A DNA stretch of 64,000 nucleotides from Bolinopsis microptera (Eukaryota; Ctenophora; Tentaculata; Lobata; Bolinopsidae), in NCBI RefSeq assembly GCF_026151205.1, contig NC_087084.1:782312-846311 (forward strand), read 5' to 3'. A model generated the notes under the pieces. That model saw only the letters and a program-made list of their open reading frames with translations, did no database searches and had not been told where the DNA came from. Positions 10,325 through 49,400 of the stretch are shown here, one piece after another. Numbering within the stretch: position 1 is the stretch's first letter; every line of letters begins with the position of its first letter. Made by a program: the position numbers and the translations under genes.

Positions 10325-13300
10325 TTAGTGGTGAGCGAGTGTTGTGCTCCTAGTTTGGTAAGCTGTGAGACCCACAGAGGGGCGTGTTGGTCCAGGTCAA
10401 CGCGCGAGCACGTGTAGAACATGCAGACTGGGTGTGTACCGTCTCCCTCTCTGCAGGTGGGGTTATTAGGTAAATAATATTCTTAATCGTAAATAGACGA
10501 TCAATTTTCATTTTATTCAGGTTGGTGTTCAAGTGAATAAAAACTAATACACTTAATAAACAAAGTTACCTTTGTGCAGCTGTACAGATGGCTTAAGTGA
10601 CGTAACAAGTGAAAGAGAAAGTGAAAGAGAAAGTGAAAGAGAAAGTGAAAGAGAAAGTAGCTAACCTAACGTTGCTCCCTGAGAGATACACAGTAGCACC
10701 TAGACAGGTGACACTCAGGTGTGACATGACGTGTAGTCGTGTAGTGGAGACAGCACGTTTAGGGTTGGGTTGGGCGGGCAGACGCTCAAATAGAGCCCAC
10801 ATCGTCTGGGAGAGAGGTTTACAACTTTACAAATATTTACTTTAGGTTAAATAGCACAAAATGTCTGGAAATTCAAAGTTTAACAATTATTAATTTTTAG
10901 TCTCGAATGTGAAGGAGACTGAGTAATCGAGGAGCTGAAAGAGAGAACGAACAAGGAAAAGAAGAGAAAGAGAAAGTGAAAGCAAACCTTGGAGTTAAAG
11001 AAGAGGGAGAGGGAGTTGAGGATGGAGTTATTGAGGAATACAGTAAACTTGTTAGCTACCATCCGTATCTCAAACAGCTCGGTCTCGTTTCTCTCCAATC
11101 TGTCCAGTTCGTCCCTGATTTATAGAGTAATTTATTTAATAACTGTAATTTATTTAATAACTGTAATTTATTTAATAACTGTAATTTATTTAATAACTGT
11201 AATTTATTTAATAACTGTAATTTATTTAATAACTGTAATTTATTTAATAACTGTAATTTATTTAATAACTGTAATTTATTTAATAACTGTAATTTATTTA
11301 ATAACTGTAATTTATTTAATAACTGTAATTATTTATTTAATAACTGTAATTTATTTAATAACTGTAATTTATTTAATAACTGTAATTTATTTAATAACTG
11401 TAATTTATTTAATAACTGTAATTTATTTGATAACTGTAATTTATTTAATAACTGTAATTTATTTAATAACTGTAATTTATTTAAAACTGTAATTTATTTA
11501 ATAACTGTAATTTATTTAAAACTGTAATTTATTTAATAACTGTAATTTATTTAATAACTGTAATTTATTTAATAACTGTAATTTATTTAATAACTGTAAT
11601 TTATTTAAAACTGTAATTTATTTAATAACTGTAATTTATTTAAAACTGTAATTTATTTAATAACTGTAATTTATTTAATAACTGTAATTTATTTAAAACT
11701 GTAATTTATTTAAAAATGTAATTTATTTAATAACTGTAATTTATTTAATAACTGTAATTTATTTAATACCTGTATATATTAAAACTTTAAAACTATGTCT
11801 TCATCAACTGCCTTCACTATTTTCGCTAATAAAGTACAACCAAATTCTGATTAACCATTTCCCCCAAACTTTACGGTAACTCGGGGTTAACTTCACTTAA
11901 TATTAGCATTATTGATTATGGTGTGTTGGTGTACGATATTATGGTGTGTTGGTTTAAATATTCACCACACCATAGTGCAAGATAATTTCAAGTGAAAGTG
12001 ATGATAATAATATAGTAAAGGTATACAGGTATACAGGTATATTAAAGGTTGTGTATATGTACTCACAAAGGGCGCTGTTTGAACTCCGGTATAATGTTTA
12101 ACATACAGAGCCACAGAGCACGGAACTTGGTGAACTTTAGTGTCTCCTCCTCGGTAGCGTGTCTCTTGTCCTGAGTTTTCTTTAATTAACTTAGTTTTAA
12201 TTAATTAATTAGTTAATGTAGCTTTATTTAATTAATTAATTACCATATTATTTACACAGATTATATCACCTCATAGTCTAGTTGAGGCAGCAGGTCGAAC
12301 AGGGAGCCCTCTGTTAATGTACTCATAGTATCTACCTCAACATCTCCGAACACAAACATCTGCTCCTTCTGGTAACCATTATTAACATTGTAAATCAGGG
12401 TTTAATACCATACTTGAAACAGGGTTCATGGCATACCAAACTTGTAAAGGGCAAATTAAATTTTTGTTTTCGGTGGTTGGTTTCTGTAAATGGACTAATT
12501 TTCTGTTAAAGGGCTGGCAACTCATTAAATAACTAACTAATTAACTAATTTTCACTAATTAACTAACATGGTGAGAGAGGTTTGCAGTTAAACTACACAC
12601 TCCCAATGTGAAGTGAGAGTAGTAGTAACCCTTAGCAACGCACTCCATCGCTAAACCTCGTATCTTCATGTTCAAGAACGGAGTGAACTGGTACTTTGCC
12701 GACCTGAGCCACAGAGATAATTTAACTAGATATTATATAATAATATATATAATATATAATAATATAGAGAACATAGTTATTTGCGATAGTTAACCAAGAA
12801 CACACTGGTTACCCTTAGTAGATTATTAACCGACATTAGGCCATTATATTATAAAACCACCAGTACGGTGTTCACTGATGTATCTTGAAAAACAGTTCAT
12901 TCTCCAAGAATCAAACCTAGAATAAAATATTGATCTACACACTGTGACATAAAGCTAACCTCTTTCTGCGCTGAGCTAGAACTTGTGTACATGAGATATT
13001 GAAACTCTTAACAAAGAGGGAGAAGTTGAAGAGCATTTCAGCAGGAGGAGCGGGGGAGACTCCGTAGTCTTCATATGCTGCCATTCCTAGCATACTCCAT
13101 CCCCAACCTATCCAACCTGGGGACATACATAATATATCCTTGTGTTTGACTACAGAACACAAAATATATATCATTGTGTAGGACTACAGAACACAAAATA
13201 TATCATTGTGTAGGACTACAGAACACAAAATATATCATTGTGTTCGACTACACAACACAGAATATATATCATTGTGTTTGACTAAATTACATAAAATATA

Positions 13301-16244
13301 TCTGTGTGTTCGACTACACAACACAGAATATATCCTTGTGTTTGACTATTACCTTCCTCGTCAGCTGACATGACGGGAGGGGGAGCAGGGTGGACTACTT
13401 GTTTAGTTGTGTCTGAAGAGTTGGTCAGGTAGTACAATCTTCTTAGTAGCACTATCAGGGCAGGGAACTGTGGGGGAGCAAGTTATAGTTTCACTAACTA
13501 TATATAATGTATATATATAATATACATAGTTAGTTATAGTAGTGTTACCTATAGTTACTATATATATAATACAGGGTATACAGCAAGTTATAGTTTCACT
13601 AACTAAATTATATATATAATATTGTATATATATATAGTTCCGGTTGTAAATACTAGTCATGTTTGTTATCAAGGGGGCCGGGGGGGGGGTCTTCTTAAGT
13701 TAATTAACCAGAGTAATCTACTTGCAGACCTGTTGATCGGAAATGTTGAGGTTAATATCGTCACACAGCACATGTACGAATATAGCGGAGGGAGAGAAGG
13801 AGTAGACGTTAGGGAAGGTGAACAGAGACCTGCAGTTTATGTGCGCTCTGTAAAGTACTGGCTCTTCGTACACTTCTATTCGACCTGCAAATAGCATACA
13901 TATAAGATACTGGTATAATTTACCTTATCGTTAATCTGAAATGAAGCAAATCTAATATAAGATACTGTTATTAGTTACCATAGTTACTGTTATTAGTTAC
14001 CTGACTATGGTTACTATAGTTACTGTTATTAGTTACCTGACTTTGGTTACCATAGTTACTGTTATTAGTTACCTGACTATGGTTACTATAGTTACTGTTA
14101 TTAGTTACCTGACTATGGTTACTATAGTTACTGTTATTAGTTACCTGACTATGGTTACTATAGTTACTGTTATTAGTTACCTGACTATGGTTACTATAGT
14201 TACTGTTATTAGTTACCTGACTATGGTTACTATAGTTACTGTTATTAGTTACCTGACTATGGTTACTATAGTTACTGTTATTAGTTACCTGACTATGGTT
14301 ACTATAGTTACTGTTATTAGTTACCTGACTATGGTTACTATAGTTACTGTTATTAGTTACCTGACTATGGTTACTATAGTTACTGTTATTAGTTACCTGA
14401 CTATGGTTACTATAGTTACTGTTATTAGTTACCTGACTATGGTTACTATAGTTACTGATATTAGTTACCTGACTATGGTTACTATAGTTACTGTTATTAG
14501 TTACCTGACTATGGTTACTATAGTTACTGTTATTAGTTACCTGACTATGGTTACTATAGTTACTGTTATTAGTTACCTGACTATGGTTACTATAGTTACT
14601 GTTATTAGTTACCTGACTATGGTTACTATAGTTACTGTTATTAGTTACCTGACGCGCTGTTTCTATCCAGACAGATAGTGAGATCTACCAGCTCAATAAC
14701 TCTTCTCAGAGTCAGTTCAGGAGACTGTACATCAGAGAAAGCCTGGCTCCACTCCGAGTTTACAGTGTACATACCTGGCGTGTTTTATCTATTTTTATAC
14801 AATATGTGCATTTGTAACAATACATTTTATAATATAATATTGTCATATCATCATGTCTTTATTGAATGTTATTTGTTTATGCCAGCGGTTTCAACCATCT
14901 GCTTTTATATTTGTTCAAACAAATCTCAATTTTGTAAGATGAAAAATGGTAGATTATGAAAAAATGTGTCGGAAAACTCACAAGCTGATTTGATGTTGAC
15001 TGATAGAACAATGTCATCTTCAATATATTTGAAAATCAGGTTGTTCACGTGAATTTCTACGTTGTTCAGTATCCGCTGCAAAGATAATCTTTCGTAAGCA
15101 AAATTCCACAACTTACAGTAAAACCCTATTCACTGTTTTATTTTCCCCAAATTGTGCACTGAATTAAATACTACATCTCTGTATACAGTGACACAGCTAA
15201 ACAAGAGTTGTTACCTGAGTGAGAAGCTGCACATAGCTGGGTGCAACAGCTTGTTGTCCACTAGCATCAGATATACCACTATCTGATTCCTTGTCTTCTT
15301 CATCTTCTGCTGTACTTGCTGCTTCTAGTTGAGGATGTAATGAGGTTAATGTCTGAACAATTGACATCTTAATGACTCTTTCTATAAAATACATAGATTC
15401 TGTTTAGGTTTATTCAAAGTGTTCAATTTCAATCCAAATCCACATCAAGAAGTAACATAAACATTTAACATATAAGCAGGTAATTGTGCAGCTATAATGA
15501 AACACCTCTTTTAGTTTCCTCTAGAGGTCTATAAGTCAAGGAACACTCCAAAGTGTTGAGCGTGATAACAACTGAATCAGACCCTAGACTAGTCCAGGGA
15601 ATGTGTATCTTTAGCTCGTGTATCCTACCGCTCAGAAACTTGACTGGGAATAGGAACTCCTGATGGGGTAAAGGAGTTGTTAAGTAACAGTATTATTATA
15701 TCGGGTTTGTAGTAGAAGCTTAGGGTTGTCTCAATAATATGCAAAAAAACTAGAGACGAGACTCAAGTTATTCTGCATTCATTCACATATAATTTTGATA
15801 AGCTGAAGATAATTAATAGATCACAATTGGCTAAGAAAATATTAAGAAATTGTAGTGAATAGCAGTATAATGTACATCCACTTCCAAGGTGAACATCATC
15901 AACTTATAATTAAGAATGCAGAATTTAAGATGTTATATTCTGTCACCTGTTCTAAGACGTCAAGTTTGAGCTCCAGATTCTTTAACAACACATCTCCTCC
16001 CCAAAGAGACACACCCAGATCATTTGGGGAGAGGTTCTGAAACATAAATCATGAGCTAACAAAAAATTATTCTGTGTTGACGAGGGATTAACTCATCCTA
16101 AAAATTCCTTGCACAAATACTCAATAAGTGAATTTGAACAGTCCTCTGGAAAGAAACAGTTGACACATTTGGTAGATGTTTGCTAACCTTGATGTACTTG
16201 TCCACATAGGACATCAAGAGAGGAGTAATGTACTTCTCCAACAT
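10325..16244 (-). CDS. VPS13B: VPS13B (COH1) homologue, N-terminal 15 coding exons, partial
   Basis: VPS13 proteins are bridge-like lipid-transfer proteins; VPS13B acts at the Golgi and endosomes. Minus-strand coding exons are: 16188-16244, 15947-16036, 15506-15659, 15215-15381, 14982-15075, 14649-14774, 13730-13884, 13353-13467, 12960-13116, 12568-12703, 12270-12368, 12067-12170, 10988-11114, 10666-10805, and about 10325-10450. All have GT/AG borders and matching phases. Family hallmarks are the start MLEKYITPLLMSYVDKYIK, then NLSPNDLGVSLWGGDV, FLSGRIHELKIHIPW, KYIEDDIVLSVNIKSA, LRRVIELVDLTICLDRN and GWIGWGWS. Exon 4 adds an acidic, Ser-rich linker. The start is chosen because it matches the chorein N-terminus of the family. 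Exons 14-15 are less similar but keep phase. The 3' end of exon 15 meets the satellite and is not resolved; later exons lie left of the window. Confidence 0.9.
10609..10657. repeat. 12-bp minisatellite (GTGAAAGAGAAA)
   Basis: About four tandem copies of GTGAAAGAGAAA lie just downstream, on the minus strand, of the VPS13B exon 14 donor. A related purine-rich stretch sits at 10,935-10,985, after exon 13. The strand bias is purine-rich on plus and pyrimidine-rich on the transcribed VPS13B sense strand. Confidence 0.9.
11119..11770. repeat. 18-bp AT-rich tandem array in VPS13B intron 12
   Basis: About 36 copies of TGTAATTTATTTAATAAC, with several units shortened by losing AT near 11,480-11,720. 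The array starts five bases from the acceptor of exon 13 (10988-11114), so it fills the acceptor side of the intron. The long plus-strand ORF here is only the repeat translated. Confidence 0.95.
13135..13345. repeat. Degenerate tandem repeat in VPS13B intron 8
   Basis: Five or six imperfect copies of a motif with ATATATCATTGTGT followed by GACTACA(G/C)AACACA lie between exons 8 and 9. Unit length varies (about 35-65 bp). No function is suggested. Confidence 0.75.
13970..14648. repeat. 36-bp tandem array abutting the VPS13B exon 6 donor
   Basis: About 18 near-identical 36-bp units (TATAGTTACTGTTATTAG then TTACCTGACTATGGTTAC). The array runs up to the 5' splice site of exon 6 (14649-14774). 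Read on the minus strand, every unit contains TCAGGTAAC, the same nine bases as the true exon 6 end and donor. The intron therefore holds a row of donor look-alikes. The 223-codon plus-strand ORF is repeat-encoded. Confidence 0.95.
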
Positions 16245-17778: not shown

Positions 17779-20700
17779 TTTTTTTTAAATATGCAACCTA
17801 CTAAAACCAATGGAGCCCTCCTCGGGGTCATTCCTCTCGCATTTGCGAAAGTCGTCCCAAAGGTGTAAAAGGAGGTCAGGATTTGTACCCGCCAAGCTCT
17901 TACATCGCTAATTGTTGACCATCGGCCTTCACTGAAGGTAAGTTTCTTTAGAGTGGAGGCCAACCGTCAGCTTGGGATGCAGGGCCAAGCGGGAAACAAC
18001 GTCAAGGCCCCTTTCTACTTAGGCCATGTTGGTTTTGGCAGATACTGTGGTAATAAAATATAAAGTGAATGAGTGAAATGAAGTGAGTGAAAAGGGTGTA
18101 AGAGAGGAGGCTGGAGGAGCTTGTAAGAAATTTAGGAAAGGAAGGAAGCAGGGCATGTACTACAAAAAGACAGCTACTAGTAGTACTGCAAGATTGTAAC
18201 AATAACTGATAAAAATTAAATAACATAGACAGCAATAAAAATGGAGTGGACATATTACCCTAATCGGCCAAGATCGACACAATAGAACTTCTGTGACCTA
18301 TTTTATCTCCTTGAAGTGATAGCTTAAGAAGTTTGATATACCCCTGCCAGATCGGCAAGTCTCCTGCCTGAAATTTTTTGCTAATGTACCATTTGGCAAC
18401 GATATTAAAATAATTTATAATTTGTGAAGTGTGATTACAGACTATAAAATTAATTTTAGTGGGATCTTCGTAATTTCTATCGATTTTCCTTTTAATAAAG
18501 TCTTCAAGTATTGTGATGAAGCTATTTGTGTGAATACAATGGAGGTAAATATGAGGAATAGTTTCTAAATATGTTTTACACAGGCTACACATGGGAGTAT
18601 CTGTAACAATTTTCATCTTATGTCTCATGTATCTACAAGTTGTGATCCTCATTAAAAGTTTGTACTGAAATTGAATCAACTTAAAGTTTTTAGATACTAA
18701 GAAAAACAGGTTGCTTAGAACGACTGCCCAGTCGATGGAATGACTGTTCAAGTCGATAACCCACTGACGTAAGGAGACAGCTCGTTTGGGCAAATAGAAT
18801 CGTACATTTTATCCCGAATTTTGCTTCCCTTCACCTGCCCAGTTGCAGAATGTAAAAATTGAAGTTTTATATTCGGGTCAACAAATTCGATATTCCTTGA
18901 GTTAATCGTGGGACAGTTATATCTCCGTATCCCCATGATAATGTTACAGTAATCAATTTTGGAAATCGTATTCGGAGACAGCTCCCACTTGTTCATGAAC
19001 ATATCGTAGTTAAGGAGTGTACTTTGGTCTATAGAAAGGAAATCTGAGATGTAAAATATTCCCTTATCAATAAGATGATTGTTCCAAAGTTTGGACCCGA
19101 TGTCAGTTATTGCTGGGTTGGACCACACACAGTGATCAATAGAACCCAAGGCTGCATTAGCCGAACTAATCTTCCACTCAGTGTAGCAATCAAGTACGTC
19201 CTGTGTAAAATTACAGTTGATATTTGCGAGACCGTTTTCTACAGAGATGGTGATATGCTCGGGAAATTTCAGTTGCATTATCATAATATCTTTCCAAGTG
19301 TGGTGAAAGGAATCATTTAGTAGCTTTGAAATAAGACTAGTTTTAAGACCTATAATAAAATCAGATAAATAAAATAGTCCCAGGCCTCCATGTTCCTTGT
19401 TTCGGGTTATGATTTCACGTTTTATTTTATCCCGTTTGCAACCCCAAAGAAAATGGAATATATTCGTGTCAAAAGTTCTGATAAAGGAAGCATCTGGTCT
19501 GGGGAGAGGAGGAACCAGGTATGTTAATTGGGAAAAGAGGAGAGTTTTGATAACTGTACATTTACCCATTACCGTCAGATCCCTCTTGTTCCACCTGTTA
19601 ATCCAAGACCGAACCTTAATCAATTTATCATTATAATTACTGTTGACTATATCCATAAGTGAGCAATCATTCCTATAAACTATACCCAAAGCCGTAAAGT
19701 TATTTGTAATAAAATCATCGCCGTAGTCCATTTGAAGGGACGCTAGAAGAGTTGTATTAAGGCGAGCACGACCTAAAGGAATACATCTAGTTTTGTCGAT
19801 GTTAGCTTTACACCCCGAGCACTGAGCAAACGTTCTGAGTTCTACCATAACTGCCTCTACACTCTCTATTGAAGCTTTCAGAAACAGATCAGTGTCGTCT
19901 GCAAAGAGACTCTGTAGAATTTCCACACCCGATATGTTAATACCCATGATATTAGGGTTGATCTGAAGTTTATTCGAGAAAGTTTGAGCCACAAGTAGAA
20001 ATAGAATAGGAGAGAGTGGGCTACCCTGATGAAGACCTCTGAGGAGATAAATAGGTGCGCTTAAAAACCCATTAATATTTGCGTAGCTAAAGCACGCTTG
20101 AAAAGCCACTTTAATCAACTTAATAATATAATCACTGAAACCTAATTTTTCAAGCGTACTGAAGACAAAGTTATGTTCTACCGAGTCAAAACATTTTTCA
20201 AAATCAATCTGTAAAAGGAGACCCTCTTGTTCCGAGTCGTTGTTAAATGATTCCAGAACCATTGACATGAGAATAAGATTATCTGCTGTACTCCTGCCTG
20301 CTTGAAAGCCTGACTGGGTTTTGCTGATTATGCTGGGGATAGCTTTCATAATCCTATTCTTAGCTATATGTGTGAAGATTTTATAGTCAATGTTAAGCAG
20401 AGTAATAGGTCTCCAATTTTTTATGTAGTTAAGTTCCACTGGGCTTTTAGGCTTGGGAATAAGAGTAAGAATACCTATTCTCTGCGAAGGCGACAGGCAT
20501 CCACTGTCAATAGATTCTAGATAGCAGTCGTAAATGATCTGCCTGATATCCAACCAAAAGGTTTTATAAAATTCAGCAGATAACCCGTCCCAACCTGGGG
20601 ATTTATTGTTTGTTAACTTGTTCACAATAGCATCCATTTCGTGTAACGAAATAGGTCCCTCCAGAGTTTCAGTAATTTCCTGTGGGATTTGCTCAAGCTC

Positions 20701-23088
20701 GCTGCTGGTTACATAATTATCTATCTCAGTGGGAGATGGGTTAGTTGAGTTATACAGATTCTGATAAAAGTTAACCACGTGACTAGAGATGTTATCCTGG
20801 TCCGTTAGTTCATTTCCGTCGTTGTCTATCAATTTACTAATACATTTTTTCTTGCCGTTTGATTTTTCAAGTCCAAAAAAGTATTTAGTCGAGCGCTCCC
20901 CCTCCTCTGTCCATTTCACACGTGATCTGGTAATTGCACCTCTCACCTCCTGATCTATAATATGATTTAAATCCGACTCTGCTTCAAATAATTTCTTCTG
21001 TAGTATCGTACAGTTTACTAGATTCGAATCGTTTTTACAGTCTTCAATATCTTTTTTTAACTTTTCTTTTTTCAATGTGATTTCTTTTTTTTTCTTTTTA
21101 CCAAAGGTCATTCCAAACTGTTTTATTTTGATTTTTATAACGTCCCAAAGACCCCTGTAAGAATCAAAGCTATCTTCTTTTGTATTATGAATGATTTTCT
21201 TTATTTCGTTAATAAAATTTTGATCTAGGAGGTGAGAGTTGTTAATTTTCCAATATCCTTTTCCGTGTGCAATAGTAGAGCCCTGGAGGGATAGCGAGAT
21301 GTAGCTGTGATCAGATTTATAGCCATGGCTTATTTCTGTATCACATACAGGTAGATTGACCAGGCTATCTTGGATCAAGAAAAAATCTAATCTAGACTGA
21401 GTTTTGTACTTTTTGTTAAAATGAGTAAAAACCCGTGCCTCAGCACCTCTGTTAAGACGGAAAATATCACTAAACCCATAGTCGTTAATGGAATCATTGA
21501 GAAAATTCTGGCAGCGACTATTTGCATGGGTGGTAGACCCCCCCTGTTTGTCCAACATGTTGTTCAGAACCGTGTTCCAGTCTCCCACAAATATTATATG
21601 ATCATCTCGTGCACGACTGAGTGATTCTAGAAATACGTTTTCGAGAAATGAAACATCGTCATTATTGGGGCAGTAGACATTCACTAAACACAGTTTGAGA
21701 GAGTCGTATTCTAACTCGACAAGGGTCGCACGACCTTGGCTGATGCTACGCTGGTTAATAATATGGAGATTCGGAGCATCAGCTTTAACAAGGAAAGCAA
21801 TACCGGTTGAGTTTGAAGTGCCATGGTTAAAGATTATATCCCCATCCCAAGAATGTTTCCAGTCTCTCTCAACTTGAGGAGTTGAGTGTGTTTCTTGGAG
21901 ACAAATGATTTGCTCAGGTTTATTTTTAAGCCAGTTTAAAACAAGATTACGTTTAATCGGGTTACCCATACCATTGCAGTTAAAAGAACCGATTTTTGGG
22001 CATGCCAACCCACTATTGCTGTTATTTTGCGGAGTCATTGTTAATCTGAAAATGGCCCCGCCCTTCCTTAGTGTAGCTTTTTACCCCCCCTGAATTAAAC
22101 CCCAGAAATGAAGGTGATGGTGTCGTGAAAAAATGAGTATATACAATGGAAATAACACAAAAAACATGAACACGCGACATAGAAACACGGAAAACGATCG
22201 TAGAAAAATAATTTCTACAATAATACAGCCTGTTTGTACTACAACCTACACTGGCCCCGCCCTTATTATAACAGTTATTATTGGAATAATAGTAGAACCA
22301 ATAATCGAAGTGACGAGGTAGCAAGGTGAGAAACACACTGTATCTAGGAAACATGAGTGAACGTGTCGCAAGGAGAAGTTGTGACAGTTTACCCGAAACT
22401 GTAGCAGATAGAAGATCAGAAAATCTAGAACAAAATGAGAATGATAGCAATTATATCATAATGTTTATAGATACCGGTTATACACCGAGCAAGAGTTTTT
22501 TTTGTATGTTTGTTGGCATAGCCTTTATAAAGATTTTTTTAAACTTTTGAATAATGAATAATGCACTGTACAAAAAATCAGTACGAGTCAATCAGACCCT
22601 TTTAAAATACCTATAAAACATAATAAATAGGTGAAATTGATGGTGATAAAGAGGTAACTCACGTGGACAAAAAACTGGTCTCTCGACGTCGGTATTATAC
22701 AGGTGTTATGATGAGAGGGGATAATTTTATAAATACTAAGTTACCTTAACTGGAAAACGACTGCACGGAGCAAGTCAATCAATAATAAATTCAATAGAAT
22801 CAGGCTGACGGATACAATATTATAAGAACTAGCGGATACAATAATATGAGGAGATACGCACGCTGAATAACAGATAAGAATTTGAAGAAGAGCCCTTAAG
22901 CCCTACCACGTAGCTCCCACCCCACGGAACCCGTGAACCACTACTTGAAGAAAAGGCACACGCTGCATAATTGCTATGCGTAAGTTAAGTGTTAAAACTT
23001 GAAGGGGTCTCTCGAAAATCGTACGAGATAATACAATACAATACAGTGAACACACGCTAGAGTGCTGTGATATACTAAAAGTTTATCA
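17736..23088 (-). mobile_element. L1/Tx1-type LINE with poly(A) tail and 19-bp TSD
   Basis: An almost full-length insertion on the minus strand. The poly(A) tail appears as a T-run of roughly 50-60 bases at 17736-17790. A 19-bp TSD, ACTATATAACAAATAATTT, lies at 17717-17735 and 23089-23107. The 3' UTR (17790-18255) reappears as a fragment near 50,100. About 1 kb of 5' sequence (22,039-23,088) has no convincing ORF1. Long TSD plus poly(A) is as expected for target-primed reverse transcription. Confidence 0.9.
18260..22038 (-). pseudogene. L1/Tx1-type ORF2 (endonuclease-reverse transcriptase), one frameshift
   Basis: ORF2 of the LINE above. The first 1,096 codons (22038-18748) contain an AP-type endonuclease: SFNCNGMGN, CLQETHS (catalytic Glu), FVGDWN and SDHSYISL. 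The reverse transcriptase follows: PGWDGLSAEF, RPITLLN, QIDFEKCFDSVEH, GLHQGSPLSPILF and FADDTDLF, all intact. A one-base indel near 18,770 moves the frame, and the reading continues at about 18793-18260. That part carries the L1-like C-terminal zinc-finger region (CSLCKTYLETIPHIYLHC). One lesion in about 1,260 codons implies a young copy. Confidence 0.9.
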
Positions 23089-26485: not shown

Positions 26486-27016
26486 ATGGTTGAAACCTTG
26501 ACTGAGCTTCCGTCAGAACTACTTTACAAAGTCTTGTCGTACTTGGATGTCAAGGACATTCTGCAAGTCTTTGCGTGTTGTTCAGACATTTATGAACAAT
26601 TTTCTACTGATATTCGGCTGTGGAGTTTCCTTTGTTTTCGTGATTATGGCATAAAGCCAGAGTTTGTCGAGCATTCAATGATATTTTATCAAAGTTTGCT
26701 TTTTCCTAACAAGGTTATGATGGGCAACACATTTAGATGTGGTTCAATGATTGTAATAACAAACAAAATGTCGAAGGGGCTATCAGGATTTTATCAAGTT
26801 TGGGGCCCAGATGAAGACAAAAAGCCTCTGTTTGAAATCACCATGAACTCTGTAGGGACTATCATTTCAACTTGTTGTCTAGATTCAGGTGATTTGGATA
26901 CAATAAGTGAACAGGAATCAAATTTTCACTGGGAAGAAAATCACTGTGACTCTCTGCATTACTGTTCTGTTGAAGTTCGCTTATCCCGGAAAGCCCCCAC
27001 AGCCGTCATTGATTGA
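26486..27016 (+). CDS. F-box protein, single exon
   Basis: An intact 176-codon ORF. Residues 5-51 fit an F-box: LTELPSELLYKVLSYLDVKDILQVFACC, then a Trp-containing segment (LWSFLCFRDYG). F-box proteins bind SKP1 and act as substrate receptors of SCF ubiquitin ligases. The remaining ~120 residues match no repeat domain I recognise; they are rich in Ser, Asp and Glu. It has no intron although its neighbours are intron-dense. AATAAA begins four bases after the TGA codon starts, so the 3' UTR would be very short. This could be a retroposed copy or a genuinely compact gene. The first ATG is used as start, but no upstream promoter was recognised. Confidence 0.7.
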   Translation: MVETLTELPSELLYKVLSYLDVKDILQVFACCSDIYEQFSTDIRLWSFLCFRDYGIKPEFVEHSMIFYQSLLFPNKVMMGNTFRCGSMIVITNKMSKGLSGFYQVWGPDEDKKPLFEITMNSVGTIISTCCLDSGDLDTISEQESNFHWEENHCDSLHYCSVEVRLSRKAPTAVID

Positions 27017-27911
27017 AATAAATTTTCGTGCACATACAGAATGAATGGTTAATAATTTAATATATATGTAGACCAAGGTCTGTGCACGGGATGCTTCCTG
27101 GAAGAATCCAGTTCTTTTAGCGGGGCACCCTACCTAAAGCCAAATTGAGATATAATAATCATATTCCTAGAGAAATAATCAGAAATCGAATACCAATCAA
27201 ATAATATGATATATAGGAGTAGTAACCATATTTACTATGCAAAATGCCCCAACCACATAGTGTAAATTTATATAGAATTCAAATTCCATATCATCATTAA
27301 ACCTCAATAGTCAATATAATAGCCCAAGCAAAATTAAATAACTTCTTATATACCTTACTGTCATACTACAAATTAATTAAACATTTGAAATCTGTTAACC
27401 AGAGAATAAATTTCTAAACCTAATGCAAGTGAAATAATTTAGATGCAATAATGAATGCCTAATGTGAGTATCATCTGTCAATGTCCTTGTAAAAAAGTCT
27501 GTAAAAGAGATATGAGTAACTAATATAGAAGAAAAAACAGGAAGTTGTCGTCTGTTGAAAAATAAATAAAATATCTAGAATATAAATTAGAATATAAAAT
27601 AACATTCAGTCAATGTGTCGTCAATAAACTGTACAATTATCAAATGTTAAAACTGGGTGATACAGTCACCAAAAATAAATACTAAGTATAATAAGTAAAT
27701 AAATTAAATGTGGTCTATAAAACTACCACTAGGTATAATAGGTCAATAAATTAAAAGTGGTTTATAAAACTACCACTGTGTGAACCATTTCTCCAGTTAA
27801 AACATGTCAGTCATGTGCAAAATCAATCAAAATGGTAAGGTGGTAAAAAAGGGAAAATCCTTTCGATACATCAATTATATATGCCTCAGATTTAAAAGAA
27901 TTAGAAGATAC

Positions 27912-30887
27912 TTAGTTATCGTCGACTATGATTGCAGTGTAAAATTTGTCATATGAATTGTCGACGGTATAATTAGGGTCTGTTGTTATAGATGAGAGTA
28001 GCTGTTTCTTATACGAATCACTAAAGCTTTTAACATCGGGCAGATTTCGTAGATCTGTTGGAACATTATTCCAACATTTTGCCCCCAAGTATTGAAAGTT
28101 TTTATGTGATGTTGATCTATTAACATATAGGTTGCAGCTTTCGCCGCTCCTACTACCTCCTGATATGTAACTAAATTTGTTCATAAAGTTTGTAGGACAA
28201 TTGTCATGGATGATTCTAAACATATAATTTGACAGATGGAGTTGTCGTCTAAGATGGAGTGGTAACCATTTCATGTCTCTATAAACATTAAGGCTGCTCT
28301 CTGTTTGTGGAACGTTGAGAGCTATTTTGGCTACCTTTTTGTACAGAGTGTCAAGTTCAGCAAGTTTTGTCTTGCCAGCTCTACAATAGATCGTGTCTAA
28401 ATAATCGAATTGTGGCAACATGAGTGCATTGGCAAACATTTTCCTATATTTAATGGGTAGCAGTGCTTTACTTCTATACATGGCACCAATTCTCTTCATG
28501 ACCTTCCTAATAATATAATCTACATGGCTTTTGAAGTTTAATTTACTATCTAGAATGAGGCCAAGATATTTTGTCTCTTTGCACTCCTTGATTGTGAAAG
28601 TTACCTCATTACATTCAATGGTTAATTCATCATGTTGATCAACAGAATCAAACAATAGGAATTCAGTCTTCTTTTCATTGAGTGATAATTTATTTACACT
28701 GAGCCATTTAAAGATTGTCATAAGTTCTATTTTCATGTTTATAAATGTGCTTCTGCAAGTTTGATCAAAGAATAGTGCACCATCATCTGCAAATAGAAAG
28801 GGCTTAGATAGGTTACAGGCATAAATGATGTCATTTATGAAGATACTAAATAATATAGGCCCAATGATGCTTCCTTGTGGTACACCACTCAGAACTTCTA
28901 AAAATGAACTTAGTTTGCCATTGATCCTAGTGCATTGATATCTACAAGATAAGAAGTTCTTAAACCAGGTTAAAGCAATGCCACCAATTCCATAATATGC
29001 CAATTTTTGAAGCAATATTTCATGATTCACTGTGTCAAAGGCCTTCTTAAGATCAAGAAAGATGATTCCTGGTTTATAAGACTTAGATTTACTCATATAT
29101 ATTTCGTCCATCAGATCGTACATCAAATAAGTTGTGGAGTGATTTTTCCGAAAGCCATATTGATGCCGGATGAAAAGTTTGTTCTCTTCCATGTAATCAG
29201 TGAGTTGCTTGCCGACAAAGTATTCTATAAGTTTTCCTACAAGTGGAAGGATGGATATTGGCCTGTAATTATTAGGATCATCTTTCATTCCTGCCTTATG
29301 GATGGGAGTTACTCTAGCTTTTTTACAAAGGGTTGGTACAACACCTGTATTAAGGCTCAAATTGACAATATGGGTCAGTGGCTCAACTATGTGTGGTACA
29401 GCTTGCTTAAGTAAAAATAGAGGCACATCGTCATATGAGGCCTTGTCATTCTTGAGCGTTTCGACATACATTAGGATATCAGTTTCATTTATTTCTTGGA
29501 ATCTATCAAATGAGATGTTAGAAGTTCTAGGAGGTAAAAAATCAGTAAAACTAACTCTTTCAATATTGGGGGCCTGATTTTGTAATCTTGATCCAACATT
29601 TGCAAAATGAAAGTTAAATAGCTCAGGATCATTCTCATTGATAGTTTGACAATTAGTTGTACCAGGGGTCATATTTGATGCCAGTTTGATAGTTTTCCAT
29701 ACCCCTTTAAGATCATTCTTGGCACTTTTAACTTGTAGATCATCGATTACATTAGCCTTTTTGCAGGTTTTAGCTAATTTATTTCTAATATTTCTCTGAA
29801 TCTTGTAGCAATCCCAGGCCTCATTACACTTTATACATTTGCTACATATACCACATTTATTGCAATTTCCATTGTCTCTCTTATCCTTCTTTTTACGGAA
29901 TTTCTTTAGAAGAAAATGTGTATGATTAATGGCATTTAAAAGTTCAGTAGAAGGTTTATGTATGAACTTTTCATGCCTTTCTATGGTCTTGCAAGGGAAG
30001 AAGGTTGCATATGCCTGTTCAATATGATGACAAAGGCTAACAGTGATAGCTTCAACATCTGTACTTTCCAATAGTGGACTGTAATCAGAACAGGTATCTA
30101 GATAGTCTAAGAATTGTTTAACATTACGTTTAGAATGATTTCTAATTTCAACCTTTTCAAATTTAGGAGCTATAGGTACTTTACAATCTATCTCACACAT
30201 AATAGCTTGATGATCCCCAATACGTTCATCAAGAACAGAAGATTGAACAAAATCTGCATAACAGTTAGTGAATATTACATCAATAGTAGTCTGGGTAAAA
30301 TTGTCTCCACGTTTAGCAACTCTAGTTATCCCTTGAATGGTTTGAACTAGATTGTAACATCTCAAGGTCATATCTAATTTTTTGTACTGGGTGGATGAGA
30401 TATTATTCTGGTCAATGTTTATATCCCCAATCCAGATAACCTTTTTCCCGTTCAATTTTTTCATGCAAAAATGAATGTACTCAATAAAGTTATCAACACT
30501 GCAATAATTTCCAGAGCGATAGAAGCAGCAAACATTGATCTTGCTATTCTTAAGCTTCACCCATAATGCTTCAATGTTATCAAGCTTACTATCCATAACT
30601 AATTCTGTGTAAGCTAGTTTTTTGTTTATCATTAAGCCACAACCACCCCTAGAACTGTTTGGCCTGTCGCATCGCATAATGTTGAAGGAGGAAGGAATAT
30701 TTATGGTGTCTGTGTCAATAGTATCATTAAGATTCATCTCATTTAGGGAAAGTATGTCTAGCTTATGATCTCGAATGAGTTGAGTAAGTTCATAACTTTT
30801 AGCTAAATTTAGGAGACCACCTTGAATGTTACAGTGACCAATGCAAAGGTTATGAAATTTGTCAGCTGAGTTGTGAATATTTGTCAT
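27912..30887 (-). CDS. LINE ORF2: endonuclease-reverse transcriptase (CR1/jockey group)
   Basis: 991 codons, intact. An N-terminal AP endonuclease (about residues 12-240) shows IGHCNIQGG, LSLNEMNLND (catalytic Glu), IWIGDINID, TIDVIFTN and GDHQAIMCEI. The reverse transcriptase (about 480-750) shows RPISILPLVGKLIE, FLDLKKAFDTVNH, GVPQGSIIGPILFSIFINDI and LFADDGALFF, with catalytic Asp residues in place. Between them (about 339-361) is a Cys cluster, CNKCGICSKCIKCNEAWDC, unusual at this position. The C-terminal part has the LPQFDYLDTIY, LPLHLRRQLHL and YLGAKCWNNVP landmarks typical of CR1/jockey-group proteins. ORF2 would nick DNA and prime reverse transcription of the element RNA. Confidence 0.93.
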   Translation of the reverse strand: MTNIHNSADKFHNLCIGHCNIQGGLLNLAKSYELTQLIRDHKLDILSLNEMNLNDTIDTDTINIPSSFNIMRCDRPNSSRGGCGLMINKKLAYTELVMDSKLDNIEALWVKLKNSKINVCCFYRSGNYCSVDNFIEYIHFCMKKLNGKKVIWIGDINIDQNNISSTQYKKLDMTLRCYNLVQTIQGITRVAKRGDNFTQTTIDVIFTNCYADFVQSSVLDERIGDHQAIMCEIDCKVPIAPKFEKVEIRNHSKRNVKQFLDYLDTCSDYSPLLESTDVEAITVSLCHHIEQAYATFFPCKTIERHEKFIHKPSTELLNAINHTHFLLKKFRKKKDKRDNGNCNKCGICSKCIKCNEAWDCYKIQRNIRNKLAKTCKKANVIDDLQVKSAKNDLKGVWKTIKLASNMTPGTTNCQTINENDPELFNFHFANVGSRLQNQAPNIERVSFTDFLPPRTSNISFDRFQEINETDILMYVETLKNDKASYDDVPLFLLKQAVPHIVEPLTHIVNLSLNTGVVPTLCKKARVTPIHKAGMKDDPNNYRPISILPLVGKLIEYFVGKQLTDYMEENKLFIRHQYGFRKNHSTTYLMYDLMDEIYMSKSKSYKPGIIFLDLKKAFDTVNHEILLQKLAYYGIGGIALTWFKNFLSCRYQCTRINGKLSSFLEVLSGVPQGSIIGPILFSIFINDIIYACNLSKPFLFADDGALFFDQTCRSTFINMKIELMTIFKWLSVNKLSLNEKKTEFLLFDSVDQHDELTIECNEVTFTIKECKETKYLGLILDSKLNFKSHVDYIIRKVMKRIGAMYRSKALLPIKYRKMFANALMLPQFDYLDTIYCRAGKTKLAELDTLYKKVAKIALNVPQTESSLNVYRDMKWLPLHLRRQLHLSNYMFRIIHDNCPTNFMNKFSYISGGSRSGESCNLYVNRSTSHKNFQYLGAKCWNNVPTDLRNLPDVKSFSDSYKKQLLSSITTDPNYTVDNSYDKFYTAIIVDDN

Positions 30888-31022
30888 TTCACAAAACGTG
30901 TTAGTCGTTGTGTCTGATTAAACTAAAATCAGGTGAAAATTATCCGCCTGTAAATATTTTTAATAGAAAAGTTTTAAACTTGAAATCAAAATAAATATTC
31001 AGGTGGAAATGTCATGTCGATT

Positions 31023-32633
31023 TCAATGGTGAGCATGGTACTTGATGTGCTTTGCTAGTTTAAAGATACCATCGCTGTTTAGATGCACATTGTCTTCCCC
31101 AAATCTACTAAAACAAGATGATTTCCTAAATCCAGATCTATCACTAAACAAAAATCGATTCTTCTCTGTGGGTATAAAGCTAACAAACGAGTATTTGGAA
31201 GGAATCTTAGATAAAAAGGTATTGATGTCATTTATCACTTTATTTCTAGCAAAACTTTCTCTCGGTAAAATGTTTATGATCTTAATTTTTGCAGCTGGAG
31301 CCCACGAGTGAAGTGACTGGATCAGATTATCAATAGAGCGATTGGTGTTATCAAGGGCCTTTGCTTTTCCTGTGAACTCATCGGGTGACAATAATCTATT
31401 CCTCATGTGTCGAGGACTCTCTAGGATTAAGTCCACATCATTAGTTCCACACATGAGTACGATGGTCTTCACATTATTTGCATCAATTGACCTCTTTCTT
31501 TCATCTGAGTGGAAGCGTTCATTGATACCGTTTGCAATGCCACCAGGATAGTGAAATACATGTGCTTCTTGATGAGCAGAGGATAGTTTTGTAGCATCTA
31601 ACTTGGAGAACATGCTTGAGCTAACATACACAGCAAGGGATTTGCTTTTGACTGAAGCAGGGGGTACGGTGCTCTTATGAGTGATTTTGTTGGGTGATGA
31701 TTTCCCTTTGATTGAGGGTTCAGTTTCTCTTACAGTATCGAAAGGCTTACTTGAGGTATCGGGTGGAGCAGACAAGGTTGCACTGCCATCAATCTGGCGC
31801 AGAGTAATGCTAATTCTCATGTCATCAGTATGGTCCTGAATAAGGCTGTGTTCAAAGCTGTCCTGAGATTTTCTGGTCATAATCATTATGTCGCCATGGG
31901 AGAGAGTAAGATTGGCAACGTGGACTTTGCTTTTAGACCTAAAACTGAGGACTCTTGTTGCTCCTAACGATATGGTGGAAATCATGGAGCCTGGTGATAT
32001 GGACCTCTCATCATCTGAATGGAATGGTATTCCTTGCTTGCCATTTTCATACTTAGTGACCATGGCGCTGTTAAATTTCAGACTTGGGAACTGTGAGCGT
32101 AAACGTTCTAAAATAGACTTTAATAAGGGATTGTCATTTAACGGCCTTGTGTTATGGAAGCCTCCATTGTAGGCATATGGGAAATCCCCATAGTATGCTA
32201 CAGTCCTATTGTTAAACGTTTGTGTGTATTGTGTTTCCATATCCAACTTGAGAGTATCAACAAACCTGAATACACCTCGACTCAAATCATGATATGGATT
32301 GATGGACTTACCCACAACGTTAACACTGGTTGAAGATTGTTTGTTAACATCAGAAGAATTCACAAGAGATGGGTTGCTATTAAGTTCAGTCACACTGCTA
32401 ACTTCACAGTTTTGAGTTTCTGATTCATGTTCAGAGATAAGAACATTGTCCCCGCAAGAGAATGGAACCGCAATTTTGTCATGGCCTGAGCCTTGGGTAA
32501 GTTTGGTTAGACGAGCAATTTGTCTCCTCAAATTGTCGTTTTCAAGACTTAGTGATACACAGGTAGAACATTTTGTTTTTGCACTGTTAGCTCTGTCACG
32601 AAGGCTGTAATTTCTGATTGGGATACCGGACAT
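31023..32633 (-). CDS. LINE ORF1 with AlkB-type 2OG-Fe(II) dioxygenase and SGNH esterase-like domains
   Basis: 536 codons, intact, directly upstream of ORF2. Residues 22-47 have CxxC then a leucine-rich, coiled-coil-like segment. Residues about 110-282 match AlkB: NRTVAYYGD, MVTKYENGKQGIPFHSDDE (Fe ligands H205 and D207), SLGATRVLSFR, LSHGDIMIM, EHSLI (third Fe ligand H262) and RISITLR (R273 for 2-oxoglutarate, R279). AlkB enzymes oxidatively remove methyl or related adducts from nucleic-acid bases. After a Ser/Pro/Lys linker, residues about 332-534 resemble SGNH hydrolases: VYVSSSMF (block I position), Gly365, GTND (396-399) and DNVHLN (D514, H517). Esterase domains are known in CR1 ORF1 proteins; an AlkB domain beside one is unexpected. 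The substrate is unknown; protecting or repairing element RNA is inference. Confidence 0.88.
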   Translation of the reverse strand: MSGIPIRNYSLRDRANSAKTKCSTCVSLSLENDNLRRQIARLTKLTQGSGHDKIAVPFSCGDNVLISEHESETQNCEVSSVTELNSNPSLVNSSDVNKQSSTSVNVVGKSINPYHDLSRGVFRFVDTLKLDMETQYTQTFNNRTVAYYGDFPYAYNGGFHNTRPLNDNPLLKSILERLRSQFPSLKFNSAMVTKYENGKQGIPFHSDDERSISPGSMISTISLGATRVLSFRSKSKVHVANLTLSHGDIMIMTRKSQDSFEHSLIQDHTDDMRISITLRQIDGSATLSAPPDTSSKPFDTVRETEPSIKGKSSPNKITHKSTVPPASVKSKSLAVYVSSSMFSKLDATKLSSAHQEAHVFHYPGGIANGINERFHSDERKRSIDANNVKTIVLMCGTNDVDLILESPRHMRNRLLSPDEFTGKAKALDNTNRSIDNLIQSLHSWAPAAKIKIINILPRESFARNKVINDINTFLSKIPSKYSFVSFIPTEKNRFLFSDRSGFRKSSCFSRFGEDNVHLNSDGIFKLAKHIKYHAHH

Positions 32634-32940
32634 AGTTCAAATAAACACAATAATGCAAAGAATTCAGGATAGAGTCTAAAACCGATGCTACTGTTTATAG
32701 TTATTTAGTTGTTGATTACAGTACCTTTGCAGCAATTCAGAAGATGGGAATAAGTGGTGTCTGATATTCTTTAGGTGATAGATGGGTGATAGGTGATAGA
32801 TGGGAGTTAACAGCTCTTAAAAACGATGTCTGATAGTCTTTAGGATGTCTTTAAATAAACTATCATGCAACAACCATTTACATCGACATACAACCTGTAA
32901 TGGTTGCTACATTTGATTGAGGTGTTAATTCCCACTAGGG

Positions 32941-33022
32941 GTCCTCAAATTATTTGTTATATAGTAGTGTTGAAAGTATTAAAATAGTAGTGTTGAATAT
33001 ATAGTAGTGTTGAAAGTATCAT
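32941..33022. repeat. Fragment of the hairpin-family repeat
   Basis: TCAAATTATTTGTTATATAG followed by TAGTGTTGAAAGTATT matches the centre of the Penelope-like hairpin at 17,654-17,690. TATATAGTAGTGTTGAAAGT then recurs within 60 bp. Confidence 0.75.
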
Positions 33023-46400: not shown

Positions 46401-49400
46401 CCAATATCTGACCGTTTGTTGAGTGCAAGGCTGCATAGTCAACACCTGAACATCTCTGTTGTTGTGGCATATGCGCCAACTGAGGGGGCTTCAGATAATG
46501 ATAAGGATGAATTCTACCAGCAGTTGTCAAGTGCATTCGATGAGCTACCCCGACATGATTTAAAATTACTGCTCGGTGATCTTAATGCTAAGGTCACATC
46601 GGACTGCAGTTCTATGTCAGGTGTCATTGGTGGACACTCGCTTCACAGCTCATCAAATGACAATGGTACCCGATTGTTGGACTTTTGCATTGCCCACCAA
46701 CTTACCATCGGGGGCACTATGTTTCAGCAAAAGGATATACATAAAGGTACGTGGAGATCACCTGATGGTCGTACTGTAAACCAAATAGACCACATCTGTA
46801 TCAGTAAGAAGTTTGGAGGCTCCTTGCTAAATGTAAAAGTTTGTAGGGGGGCTGACATTGGGTCTGATCACTATTTGGTAAGAGCACGACTGAGAATGAA
46901 GCTTATGTCAGTGAAAAAGAAGCAGGAACGTAAGCTTGAGATTCCTGCTATTGAGCATCTGCGTGATCATTCACTTGTTTCCGAATACAATATTGTTCTG
47001 AGAAACAAATTTGACTGTTTGGAACCTGAGGTTGACCTGGAATCAATGTGGGACAACTTCAAGACAACTGTCCAACAAGTTTCCATGGAAATCCTTGGGC
47101 AAAGACCTCGAAAAAAGAAGGACAGGCACCAATCTCAGAAGACAAAAGAATTATTGAAGAACCGTAAGGAATTTAAGCGTAAAGACCCTAATTCGAACGC
47201 TAACAGGTCAGAGTATTCTAGATTGAATAAGCTCTTTAAAAAAAGTAGCAAGGTGGACGATAACAACTGGGCACGTAGAATGGCCAATGACTTGGAAGAA
47301 GCTGCGAGAAAAGGTCAGCAACGTGAGGTATGGCAGAAGATCAATGTCATATCTGGAAAGAAGAAGAAGCAGTCAACTGCAGTTAGAGACGTATCTGGCC
47401 AGTTGATTGCCGACCCACATGCCCAGAAAGAAAGGTGGAAAGAGCACTTCTCTAGGCTATTGAACCCTCCCCCGCAAGAGGCCAATATTTCTGACCTAGA
47501 CAACATCCCTCCGCAACCCAGTTTTGACGACCTTTCCGATTCGGATGAAGCTTCTACAAGAAACGAGATTGTTGATGCCCTCAAAAAACTCAAGAATCAC
47601 AAAAGTCCAGGAGTGGATGGTATCACCAACGAGCAACTTAAGTATGGACAGGATGGGTTGGTCGACCAACTAGTTGTGTTGTTCAAGAAAGTGTGGGAAG
47701 ATGAGAAGATTCCTGAGGATTGGTCCAAAGGTGTTATTATCATCGTTGGAAAGAAAGGTGACACCTCTCATTGCGCTAACAACAGAGGCATTACATTAAG
47801 ATCCACAGCCTCGAAGCTCCTGCAGATGATACTCCTGCGGAGACTTAGCAATGGCATGGAAAGATTCCTCCGGGAAAATCAAAGTGGTTTTAGACAGAAT
47901 CGCTCATGTATTGACCAGGTTTATTCACTCCGCTGTATTATACACCAATGCATTGAGTATTATATCCCTCTGTATATTAATTTTGTTGATTTCAAAGCAG
48001 CTTTTGATTCAATTGACAGGCAGTTCATTTGGAGAAGTATGCAGCACTACGGCTTACCTGACAAGTACATTAGAATTATGAAGGCGTTCTTCACTCACAC
48101 AGTTAGTGCTGTTAGGGTCAATGGAGAGGTTACAGGTTGGTTTGATGTCAACTCGGGCACTGGGCAAGGTGATATACAGGGACCACCAGTCTTCAACTTT
48201 TGTTTGAATTTTTCGGCATACCTTATGGAACTGAACAAGGTCATTAGCAAAGGGGCTTTATTACAGCTGCCAGCCCCCGGGGTAGAAGAGAAACATCTTT
48301 TGGACACTGATTACGCTGATGACATGGCTATGTTAGATAACTCAAAAGAGGGGCTGCAGGAAACCACTGACCTTCTCTGCAAATACAGTGCCTATGCGGG
48401 TCTGAAGATTAATGCTGGCAAGACACAGAGCATGGTTGTCAGCAAAAGTGCATCGCAGAGGCCGTATTCTAAAGACGACACTATGGACATCAATGTGGAA
48501 GGTCTCCCAATACAGCAGGTCAGCAATTTCACTTACTTGGGTGCAATCATCAGTGCGAATGGAACAATTGACAAAGAACTTTCAGCTCGAATTCAAAAGG
48601 CCTCTGGGGCATTCTATCAGCTCAGCAGTATATGGTACAGTCGCAACATCAAGACTCCAACTAAAATCAGGATTTACAAAGCGGCTGTTCTCACTATACT
48701 GCTTTATGGAAGTGAGGTATGGAATACCACACAGACGCAGATGAAAAGATTTGAGGTGTTCCATCATAGATGTCTCAGGAGGATCCTGAAAATAAAATGG
48801 TTTTATCATGTATCTAATGCTGATGTACTTAAGCGGGCTAACATCGCCCCTGTTGATACTTTCGTACGAGCAGCTAGACTCCGATGGTTTGGCCATGTGG
48901 TGAGGATGCCAGAAGAAAGAATACCCAACTATCTTCTGCACTGGATCCCAAAGCATGGTAAAAGGTCAAGAGGTAGACCTCGGAAAAACTGGATGTCATG
49001 TGTCCGGGAGGATGCAGCAATCTTCACAGGTGTCGATAACATCACGATAGAAGATGCAGAACAACAAGCTACAGACAGGGTTCACTGGAGAGGTCTAATA
49101 CACCGGAGAAAGGAGTTACTATGTGGTGCAGGCCACTCCAACGACTAGGAGGAGACCTTTTCAAGTACAAGTAAGTATCTAAAAATTTTTCGCTGTCTCA
49201 GGTTTTCTTAAATTTTGTCTCAGGATTTTTCGCTGTCTCGGGATTTCTTAAATTTTGTCTCAGGTTTTTTCGCGCGTCTCAGGATTCTTAAATTTTGTCT
49301 TAGGTTTTTTCGCTGTCTCGGGATTTCTTAAATTTTGTCTCAGGTTTTTTCGCTGTCTCAGGATTTCTTAAATTTTGTCTCAGGATTTTTCGCTGTCTCA

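What the first reader, a model, noticed from the sequence alone, without database searches (positions are those of the whole stretch)
31023..32633. LINE ORF1 fusing an AlkB-type dioxygenase to an SGNH esterase-like domain
Seen: one uninterrupted 536-codon ORF upstream of an intact CR1/jockey-group ORF2. It carries all AlkB signature residues (H205, D207, H262, R273, R279, plus NRTVAYYGD, MVTKYENG and LSHGDIMIM). An SGNH-like region follows with GTND and DNVHLN. Known: esterase domains occur in CR1 ORF1 proteins, and AlkB domains occur in DNA/RNA repair and in some plant RNA viruses. Inference: the element may have captured a nucleic-acid demethylase to repair or demethylate its own RNA or cDNA, or to resist host base methylation. 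I do not know of this combination as a standard ORF1 architecture.
Basis: partly seen in the sequence, partly recalled or inferred. Interest (0 to 1): 0.88.

Follow-up and report, generated by a model that had tools for sequence, protein, structure and literature searches.

The report
Jumping genes carrying RNA/DNA-repair enzyme
A family of self-copying genetic elements in this animal genome encodes a coat-type protein with what looks like an intact base-demethylating enzyme (AlkB type) next to an esterase-like enzyme, and the same two enzymes also turn up in a quite different kind of jumping gene in the same genome, which suggests that some mobile elements carry their own tool for cleaning methyl groups off their RNA or DNA.

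The parts
27010..33018 (-). whole non-LTR retrotransposon copy (6009 bp; includes ~34 nt of extra repeated 5' sequence beyond the 5' end at 32984 shared with other copies)
   Evidence: 5' end from 6 other copies, 3' end from 3 copies, empty site from the paralogous F-box gene
33019..33022 (.). target-site duplication TCAT, 5' side of the element
   Evidence: comparison with the empty site in L061
27006..27009 (.). target-site duplication TCAT, 3' side of the element
32634..33018 (-). 5' untranslated region
31023..32633 (-). ORF1, 536 aa: short Cys motif and coiled coil - AlkB dioxygenase - linker - SGNH hydrolase
32493..32567 (-). predicted long helix, aa 23-47, read as a coiled coil (consensus CxxC...LRRQIAxL)
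   Evidence: AlphaFold2 model; conserved columns
31788..32282 (-). AlkB-type Fe(II)/2OG dioxygenase domain, aa 118-282
31026..31643 (-). SGNH/GDSL hydrolase domain, aa 331-536 (S340, G364, N398, D514, H517)
27912..30887 (-). ORF2, 991 aa: endonuclease (aa 20-207) and reverse transcriptase (aa 531-778)
   Evidence: Pfam RVT_1 1e-35, Exo_endo_phos 3.7e-6; R2 and L1 ORF2 in PDB
27010..27911 (-). 3' untranslated region, ending in TTTATTTCAATCA, no poly(A)

Best explanation
The element is a recently active non-LTR retrotransposon with an esterase-type ORF1 (like type IV of Khazina and Weichenrieder) that has an AlkB dioxygenase between its coiled coil and its SGNH domain. Proposed working: ORF1p oligomerises through the coiled coil, coats the element RNA, and its ALKBH2/3-like domain uses Fe(II), 2-oxoglutarate and O2 to strip base methyl adducts (most likely 1-methyladenine and 3-methylcytosine, which block copying) from the element's single-stranded nucleic acid, i.e. 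the RNA template and perhaps the first cDNA strand, so that target-primed reverse transcription can run to the end. The SGNH domain probably serves RNP assembly or membrane/lipid contact, as proposed for the zebrafish L2 esterase. SHOWN: domains, fold class by prediction, intact metal and 2OG-carboxylate residues, purifying selection, amplification in several families, presence in Helitrons. INFERRED: oligomerisation, RNA coating, catalysis, substrate, action on the element itself, and the benefit. The same pair in Helitrons, whose transposition passes through single-stranded DNA (recalled), fits a single-strand-protection role.
Against: No biochemical data. The position that is usually Asn and contacts 2OG in AlkB (N of N-x-Y; recalled) is Thr in 48 of 51 rows and His in 3, although it is Asn in the Helitron and some other families (read by eye from sequences printed); this could weaken 2OG binding. 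Lower synonymous divergence in AlkB (pS 0.59) than in SGNH (0.76) or the N-terminus (0.77) means that part of AlkB's low divergence could be recombination; dN/dS for SGNH and N-terminus could not be computed (saturated). The Asp of the SGNH DxxH block is not among the invariant columns of the nine ORF1s. The tree used only ALKBH2 and ALKBH3 as cellular references. Substrate class is inferred from kinship.
Confidence: 0.55

Rival explanations
1. The AlkB domain is an m6A eraser that frees element RNA from host m6A-based control, as proposed for the AlkB of orchid Ty3/Gypsy elements.
For: Direct precedent of an AlkB with in-vitro m6A demethylase activity in a retrotransposon (PMC9289625, abstract and discussion read). 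The host has MT-A70-type methyltransferase exons.
Against: Sequence and fold are nearer to ALKBH2/3 than to ALKBH5. MT-A70 genes do not look expanded (7 exon-level matches among 8 candidates). Helitrons, which are DNA elements, carry an AlkB of the same group, which an RNA-only m6A role does not explain.
Confidence: 0.2
2. The domain acts on DNA: it removes 6mA or alkyl lesions from the element's cDNA or from target DNA, or lifts DNA methylation marks from element copies (epigenetic counter-defence).
Against: ORF1 proteins are RNA-binding in studied LINEs (recalled). The search for adenine methyltransferases of the PF01555 type got no answer, so whether the host has such a DNA mark is unknown.
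Confidence: 0.14
3. AlkB and SGNH are kept as binding scaffolds (RNA grip, dimer surface) rather than as enzymes.
For: Thr/His instead of Asn at the 2OG-contact position in the window's group; [quoted passage not shown]
Against: Metal and 2OG-carboxylate residues are kept in 61 of 61 homologues and SGNH Ser, Asn and His across nine much diverged ORF1s, which a scaffold would not need.
Confidence: 0.08
4. Artefact: a chimeric gene or host ALKBH pseudogene next to a LINE.
For: None found.
Against: Many near-identical complete copies with ORF2 downstream; element ends with a TSD against an empty site; separate host ALKBH2-like and ALKBH3-like genes exist.
Confidence: 0.01

Closest known systems
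Type IV (esterase) ORF1 of CR1/L2-lineage LINEs, e.g. zebrafish ZfL2-1 (PMC3905857; PMC4120745)
   Same: N-terminal Cys motif and coiled-coil helix (type IV is sometimes with zinc finger/leucine zipper), C-terminal SGNH hydrolase with the Ser, Gly, Asn, Asp, His set, gag-like position upstream of an EN-RT ORF2
   Different: An AlkB dioxygenase sits between coiled coil and SGNH. The survey of ORF1 domains of 448 Jockey-superfamily elements does not contain the words AlkB, dioxygenase, oxygenase or 2OG and found esterase ORF1s only in two vertebrate groups; PMC3905857 aligns esterases from chordates, cnidarians and sponges (passage)
AlkB-bearing orchid Ty3/Gypsy elements (PMC9289625)
   Same: A retrotransposon that captured an AlkB/2-ODD domain with intact cofactor residues, kept over rounds of replication
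   Different: There it is a separate ORF of giant LTR elements, related to plant m6A demethylases; here it is ALKBH2/3-like, fused into ORF1 of non-LTR elements with an SGNH partner, and found in Helitrons too
AlkB domains of plant alphaflexi-, betaflexi- and closteroviruses
   Same: An RNA-based replicon with its own AlkB, proposed to keep its RNA intact (as told in the discussion of PMC9289625)
   Different: A domain of plant RNA viruses, not of a retrotransposon ORF1; no SGNH partner that I recall
Texim: SGNH hydrolase genes linked to fish Helitrons, related to CR1 esterases (PMC4021074)
   Same: SGNH hydrolases of related kind linked to both CR1 LINEs and Helitrons
   Different: The words AlkB and dioxygenase do not occur in it; texim is a gene close to the Helitron, not a domain in one frame with Rep
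Human ALKBH2 and ALKBH3
   Same: Best sequence and fold matches, same metal and 2OG-carboxylate residues, same HxDxE stretch
   Different: Cellular enzymes; the host has its own ALKBH2-like and two ALKBH3-like genes outside the mobile-element group in the tree

Membership tests
AlkB-type Fe(II)/2OG dioxygenase | Pfam 2OG-FeII_Oxy_2 above the curated cut-off | tested here: met
   67.4 bits against 31.2
AlkB-type Fe(II)/2OG dioxygenase | HxD...H metal triad and RxxxxxR | tested here: met
   H205, D207, H262, R273, R279; 61 of 61 homologues
AlkB-type Fe(II)/2OG dioxygenase | Double-stranded beta-helix fold of the AlkB type | tested here: met
AlkB-type Fe(II)/2OG dioxygenase | Asn of N-x-Y contacting 2OG (recalled; not a strict family rule as far as I know) | tested here: not met
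   T193 in the window; T 48, H 3 of 51 rows; Tyr195 kept in 50 of 51. Called AlkB-type on the other features; lowers confidence in ordinary 2OG binding
AlkB-type Fe(II)/2OG dioxygenase | Oxidative demethylation activity | not testable with these tools
   Needs an enzyme assay
SGNH hydrolase | Ser, Gly, Asn, DxxH of blocks I, II, III, V | tested here: met
   S340 51 of 51; G364 47 of 49; N398 49 of 49; D514 and H517 46 of 47 each (gaps left out). Block I reads SSS instead of GDS. In other families of the genome the Asp is not invariant
SGNH hydrolase | Pfam GDSL model above the curated cut-off | tested here: not met
   18.3 bits against 32.9; met in the Helitron frames L046, L047, L048. A library threshold rather than a defining trait, so SGNH is kept on fold and residues
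SGNH hydrolase | Flavodoxin-like SGNH fold | tested here: met
Non-LTR retrotransposon | EN + RT ORF2, insertion with a short TSD | tested here: met
   4-bp TSD and empty site
CR1/L2/Jockey clade | Placement in an RT tree with reference clades | not tested
   No reference library on hand; short TSD and lack of poly(A) are compatible only
Type IV ORF1 | Esterase domain, sometimes with zinc finger/leucine zipper | tested here: met
   Definition read in PMC4120745; domains. The AlkB is extra to this type

The most novel reading that the evidence does not exclude
AlkB+SGNH is a portable two-enzyme module for mobile elements with a single-stranded stage: captured once from an ALKBH2/3-like enzyme, spread through several LINE lineages with the help of ORF1 exchange, passed to Helitrons with the domain order reversed, and kept because it erases two kinds of nucleic-acid or RNP modification (methyl by AlkB, acyl by SGNH) that damage or host defence puts on the single-stranded intermediate.
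Probability: 0.25. Interest if true: 0.93.

Novelty: new variant of a known kind. Interest (0 to 1): 0.82.

Why it matters
ORF1 proteins are the least understood part of LINEs. Here an ORF1 carries a whole nucleic-acid repair/demethylation-type enzyme that selection has kept through ORF1 exchange and amplification, and the same enzyme pair sits in Helitrons of the same genome. If active, it is an animal transposon's own tool against base methylation or alkylation of its intermediates, testable with a purified domain and a retrotransposition assay. It also makes it possible to ask which modification limits copying of a LINE RNA.

Tried and rejected
Rejected: chance ORF, chimera or host pseudogene. 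Relatives in other collections: two scans of viral contigs (protein; A1) and one of genome contigs (A1) confirmed no relative; these match short patterns only, so distant relatives are not excluded. SGNH tree: branches too long to tell whether LINE and Helitron SGNH domains share a recent origin; nothing is built on it (two of the chosen rows, P0061 and P0091, were left out by the script). AU tests do not settle whether Helitron AlkBs lie inside the LINE AlkBs (LINE-only clade not rejected, p 0.20; Helitron with ALKBH3 not rejected, p 0.10). Whether SGNH-only ORF1 families exist here: one search lists many SGNH stretches in repeated frames of about 478-523 aa which, by eye, do not coincide with the AlkB rows, but both lists are limited to about 150 scored candidates (of 424 and 587) and the sequences could not be fetched. 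Literature: of ten searches nine held an AlkB-, 2OG- or PF13532-type term (one search was on CR1 esterases). I saw listings (titles and starts of abstracts), most of them cut: 0 papers, 4 listed of 5, 18 of 18, 20 of 26, 20 of 77, 10 of 15, 12 of 226, 12 of 34, 12 of 3326 in 74. None listed is on AlkB in a LINE ORF1 or Helitron. The library holds open-licence papers only. A survey of adenine methylation by Iyer and colleagues in BioEssays, recalled as relevant and asked for by a recalled DOI, is not held, so prior mention there is not excluded. Repbase was not on hand.

Full report
OBSERVATION. The ORF is real, 536 codons, on the minus strand at 31023-32633; the + strand in that frame is full of stops. 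It lies upstream of an uninterrupted 991-codon ORF2 (27912-30887, minus) with endonuclease and reverse-transcriptase domains (R2 and human L1 proteins are among the solved structures matched). Pfam gives 2OG-FeII_Oxy_2 at aa 152-279, E=2.6e-18, and only a weak GDSL match, E=0.0036, below its cut-off. Human ALKBH3 and ALKBH2 are the best PDB sequences.

THE ELEMENT. Six other copies share a 5' end at window 32984, three share the 3' end. A paralogue of the neighbouring F-box gene on the same contig, 98% identical over residues 1-172 (L061), shows the empty site: the insertion is 27010-33018, flanked by TCAT on both sides. About 34 nt of extra, repeated sequence precede the shared 5' end. There is no poly(A); the end reads TTTATTTCAATCA.

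COPIES. In the same genome (264.65 Mb, 232 contigs, unnamed) the ORF1 search gave 85 matches (81 of 855 candidates scored), among them 16 full-length copies at 97-100% (family A) and 23 nearly full-length copies at 65-66%, starting at residue 1, 4 or 18 (family B; one has a stop); one further copy at 58% has ten stops, and the rest are partial. The ORF2 search scored 46 of 6563 candidates. Matching the two tables, 11 of the 16 A copies and 16 of the 23 B copies have a listed ORF2 downstream on the same strand, 10 and 16 of them within 500 bp; in the eleventh a second ORF1 fragment lies between. The other 5 and 7 have none in the list; as it is capped these are lower bounds.

ORF1 EXCHANGE. ORF2 of A and B are 98% identical in protein. 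One B copy (L054) aligned to the window copy shows 98.2% nt identity in ORF2 and 97.5% in the 707 aligned nt of 3'UTR, but 68.0% in ORF1 and 76.0% in the 5'UTR, with a sharp change within the first 150 nt of ORF2. So the 5' part with ORF1 was exchanged between lineages, and both versions carry AlkB and SGNH.

SELECTION. Between A and B (one copy each, Nei-Gojobori script) the AlkB part has pN 0.10, pS 0.59, dN/dS 0.09; N-terminus pN 0.42, linker pN 0.35 (dN/dS 0.39), SGNH pN 0.19; dN/dS for N-terminus and SGNH is not computable because synonymous sites are saturated. Among 8 of the 16 full-length A copies pN/pS is 0.15 for AlkB, 0.47 for SGNH and 0.72 for the N-terminus; the linker has no synonymous difference. 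Synonymous divergence between A and B is also lowest in AlkB and the linker (0.59-0.60), so recombination may add to AlkB's likeness. In A1 (window plus 50 of the 61 proteins) H205, D207, E209, H262, R273, R279 and S340 are invariant. In all 61 proteins the metal and 2OG-carboxylate residues and E209 are kept. Against an ordinary enzyme: the position of AlkB's 2OG-contact Asn (recalled) is Thr in 48 and His in 3 of 51.

OTHER LINES. A search of the genome with PF13532 gave 151 matches, 150 of 587 candidates scored; the listed rows are over the cut-off and all but one without stops. Three lie in host-like genes: one ALKBH2-like (E=3.8e-60 to human ALKBH2) and two ALKBH3-like. Of the further families looked at, L039/L050, L040, L041 and L049 are LINEs: ORF1 with AlkB (PHD finger matches in L039, weakly in L040) followed by an ORF2 with RT (Pfam run on L039, L040, L041, L049); L042 has an AlkB ORF1 followed by a 568-aa piece alike to the N-terminal part of L041's ORF2. 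L022 is an AlkB ORF1 with a PHD match, followed by a frame that by eye begins like L040's ORF2. L015 and L031 are AlkB-SGNH ORF1s followed by frames that by eye begin like the window's ORF2. The ORF2s form deep lineages about 26-30% identical to each other (A/B; L039/L040; L041/L049/L042) and 36-48% within the last two. L025/L029 carry AlkB, with weak coiled-coil-type matches and, in L029, a weak SGNH match, in an element not identified. Across nine ORF1s (A2; 20-40% identical to the first) the AlkB H, D, E, H, R, R and the SGNH Ser, Asn, His and GxND-block Gly are invariant; the Asp of DxxH is not.

HELITRONS. Frames of up to 3388 aa are Helitrons. L046 holds GDSL (6.2e-11), AlkB (1.5e-17), DUF6570 (5.3e-11) and Helitron_like_N (1.8e-23) in one frame; L047 holds the same four. 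L051, by its coordinates the downstream part of the 3388-aa frame, holds Helitron_like_N and PIF1 helicase; I did not scan that frame as a whole. In L048 the set is split over two frames. Four public proteins of 2478-3181 aa have GDSL, AlkB, DUF6570, Helitron_like_N and PIF1 together. The order is SGNH-AlkB, the reverse of the LINEs. In a 38-row AlkB tree the LINE and Helitron AlkBs form one side of a branch (97/96) apart from ALKBH2/3 and L025/L029, and Helitrons sit beside L040/L022 (94/92), but AU tests do not exclude other placements. ALKBH2 and ALKBH3 were the only cellular references, and the public proteins counted there as LINE were seen without their neighbours.

HOST. Not named. Twelve contigs of 15-26 Mb appear and C6 reaches past 20.7 Mb, so there are at least 13 chromosome-sized contigs; all 4 public homologues that carry a source's name are from Mnemiopsis leidyi (3; 1, a gene model joining AlkB with an endonuclease). 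This suggests a ctenophore; it is inference.

LITERATURE. Seen: PMC9289625 (outline with abstract, discussion section, passages), PMC4120745 (outline with abstract, one section, passages), PMC3905857 (passages), PMC5408684 (passages), PMC4021074 (passages), PMC4289320 (term search without a hit). The listings of the searches are told under Tried and rejected.

MECHANISM. ALKBH2/3 enzymes reverse m1A and m3C, lesions formed mostly in single strands and blocking for polymerases (established knowledge). A LINE RNA must be copied through ~6 kb, and a Helitron passes through ssDNA (recalled). An element-borne ALKBH2/3-type enzyme fits both. m6A erasure is the main rival, by the orchid precedent. 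SGNH may anchor the RNP to lipids, as proposed in PMC3905857. MT-A70 writers are present but do not look expanded. None of the enzymatic steps is shown.

Noticed in passing
L046:3148-9900 (+), L047:4-6618 (-), L048, L051 (G000 C9, C3, C10): Helitrons with SGNH, AlkB, DUF6570 and Rep (Helitron_like_N) in one frame (L046, L047), PIF1 helicase in the downstream part of another copy (L051); relatives P0062-P0065 in public data hold all five.
   Followed up: partly
window 27010-33018 against L054: Two subfamilies share ORF2 and 3'UTR at ~98% nt but ORF1 and 5'UTR at 68-76%: an exchange of the 5' part between lineages.
   Followed up: partly
window 26486-27016 (+): F-box gene cut off by the element's insertion after about codon 174; a copy without the insertion, 98% identical over residues 1-172, lies on the same contig at G000:C13:738909-739424, its frame running to 215 aa.
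   Followed up: yes
G000, rows: Many repeated frames of about 478-523 aa with SGNH and, by eye, no listed AlkB: possibly AlkB-free sister ORF1s.
   Followed up: no
L025, L028, L029, L034, L035, L036: Frames of 591-884 aa with AlkB; of the two scanned (L025, L029) both have weak coiled-coil-type matches and L029 a weak SGNH match; their AlkB lies apart from the main mobile-element group; element type unknown.
   Followed up: partly
window 18748-22038 (-) and 46416-49148 (+): Two further LINE-like ORF2 frames (1096 and 910 aa), distant from the AlkB element's ORF2 (25-27% identity over parts).
   Followed up: no
window 10989-11492, 14007-14678, 59296-60099: Long open frames that by eye are translated tandem repeats, not genes.
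   Followed up: no
window ORF1, L054 ORF1, P0003, P0004: A groups with B in the AlkB trees but with P0004 in the SGNH tree, where B groups with P0003: possible mosaic ORF1s.
   Followed up: no
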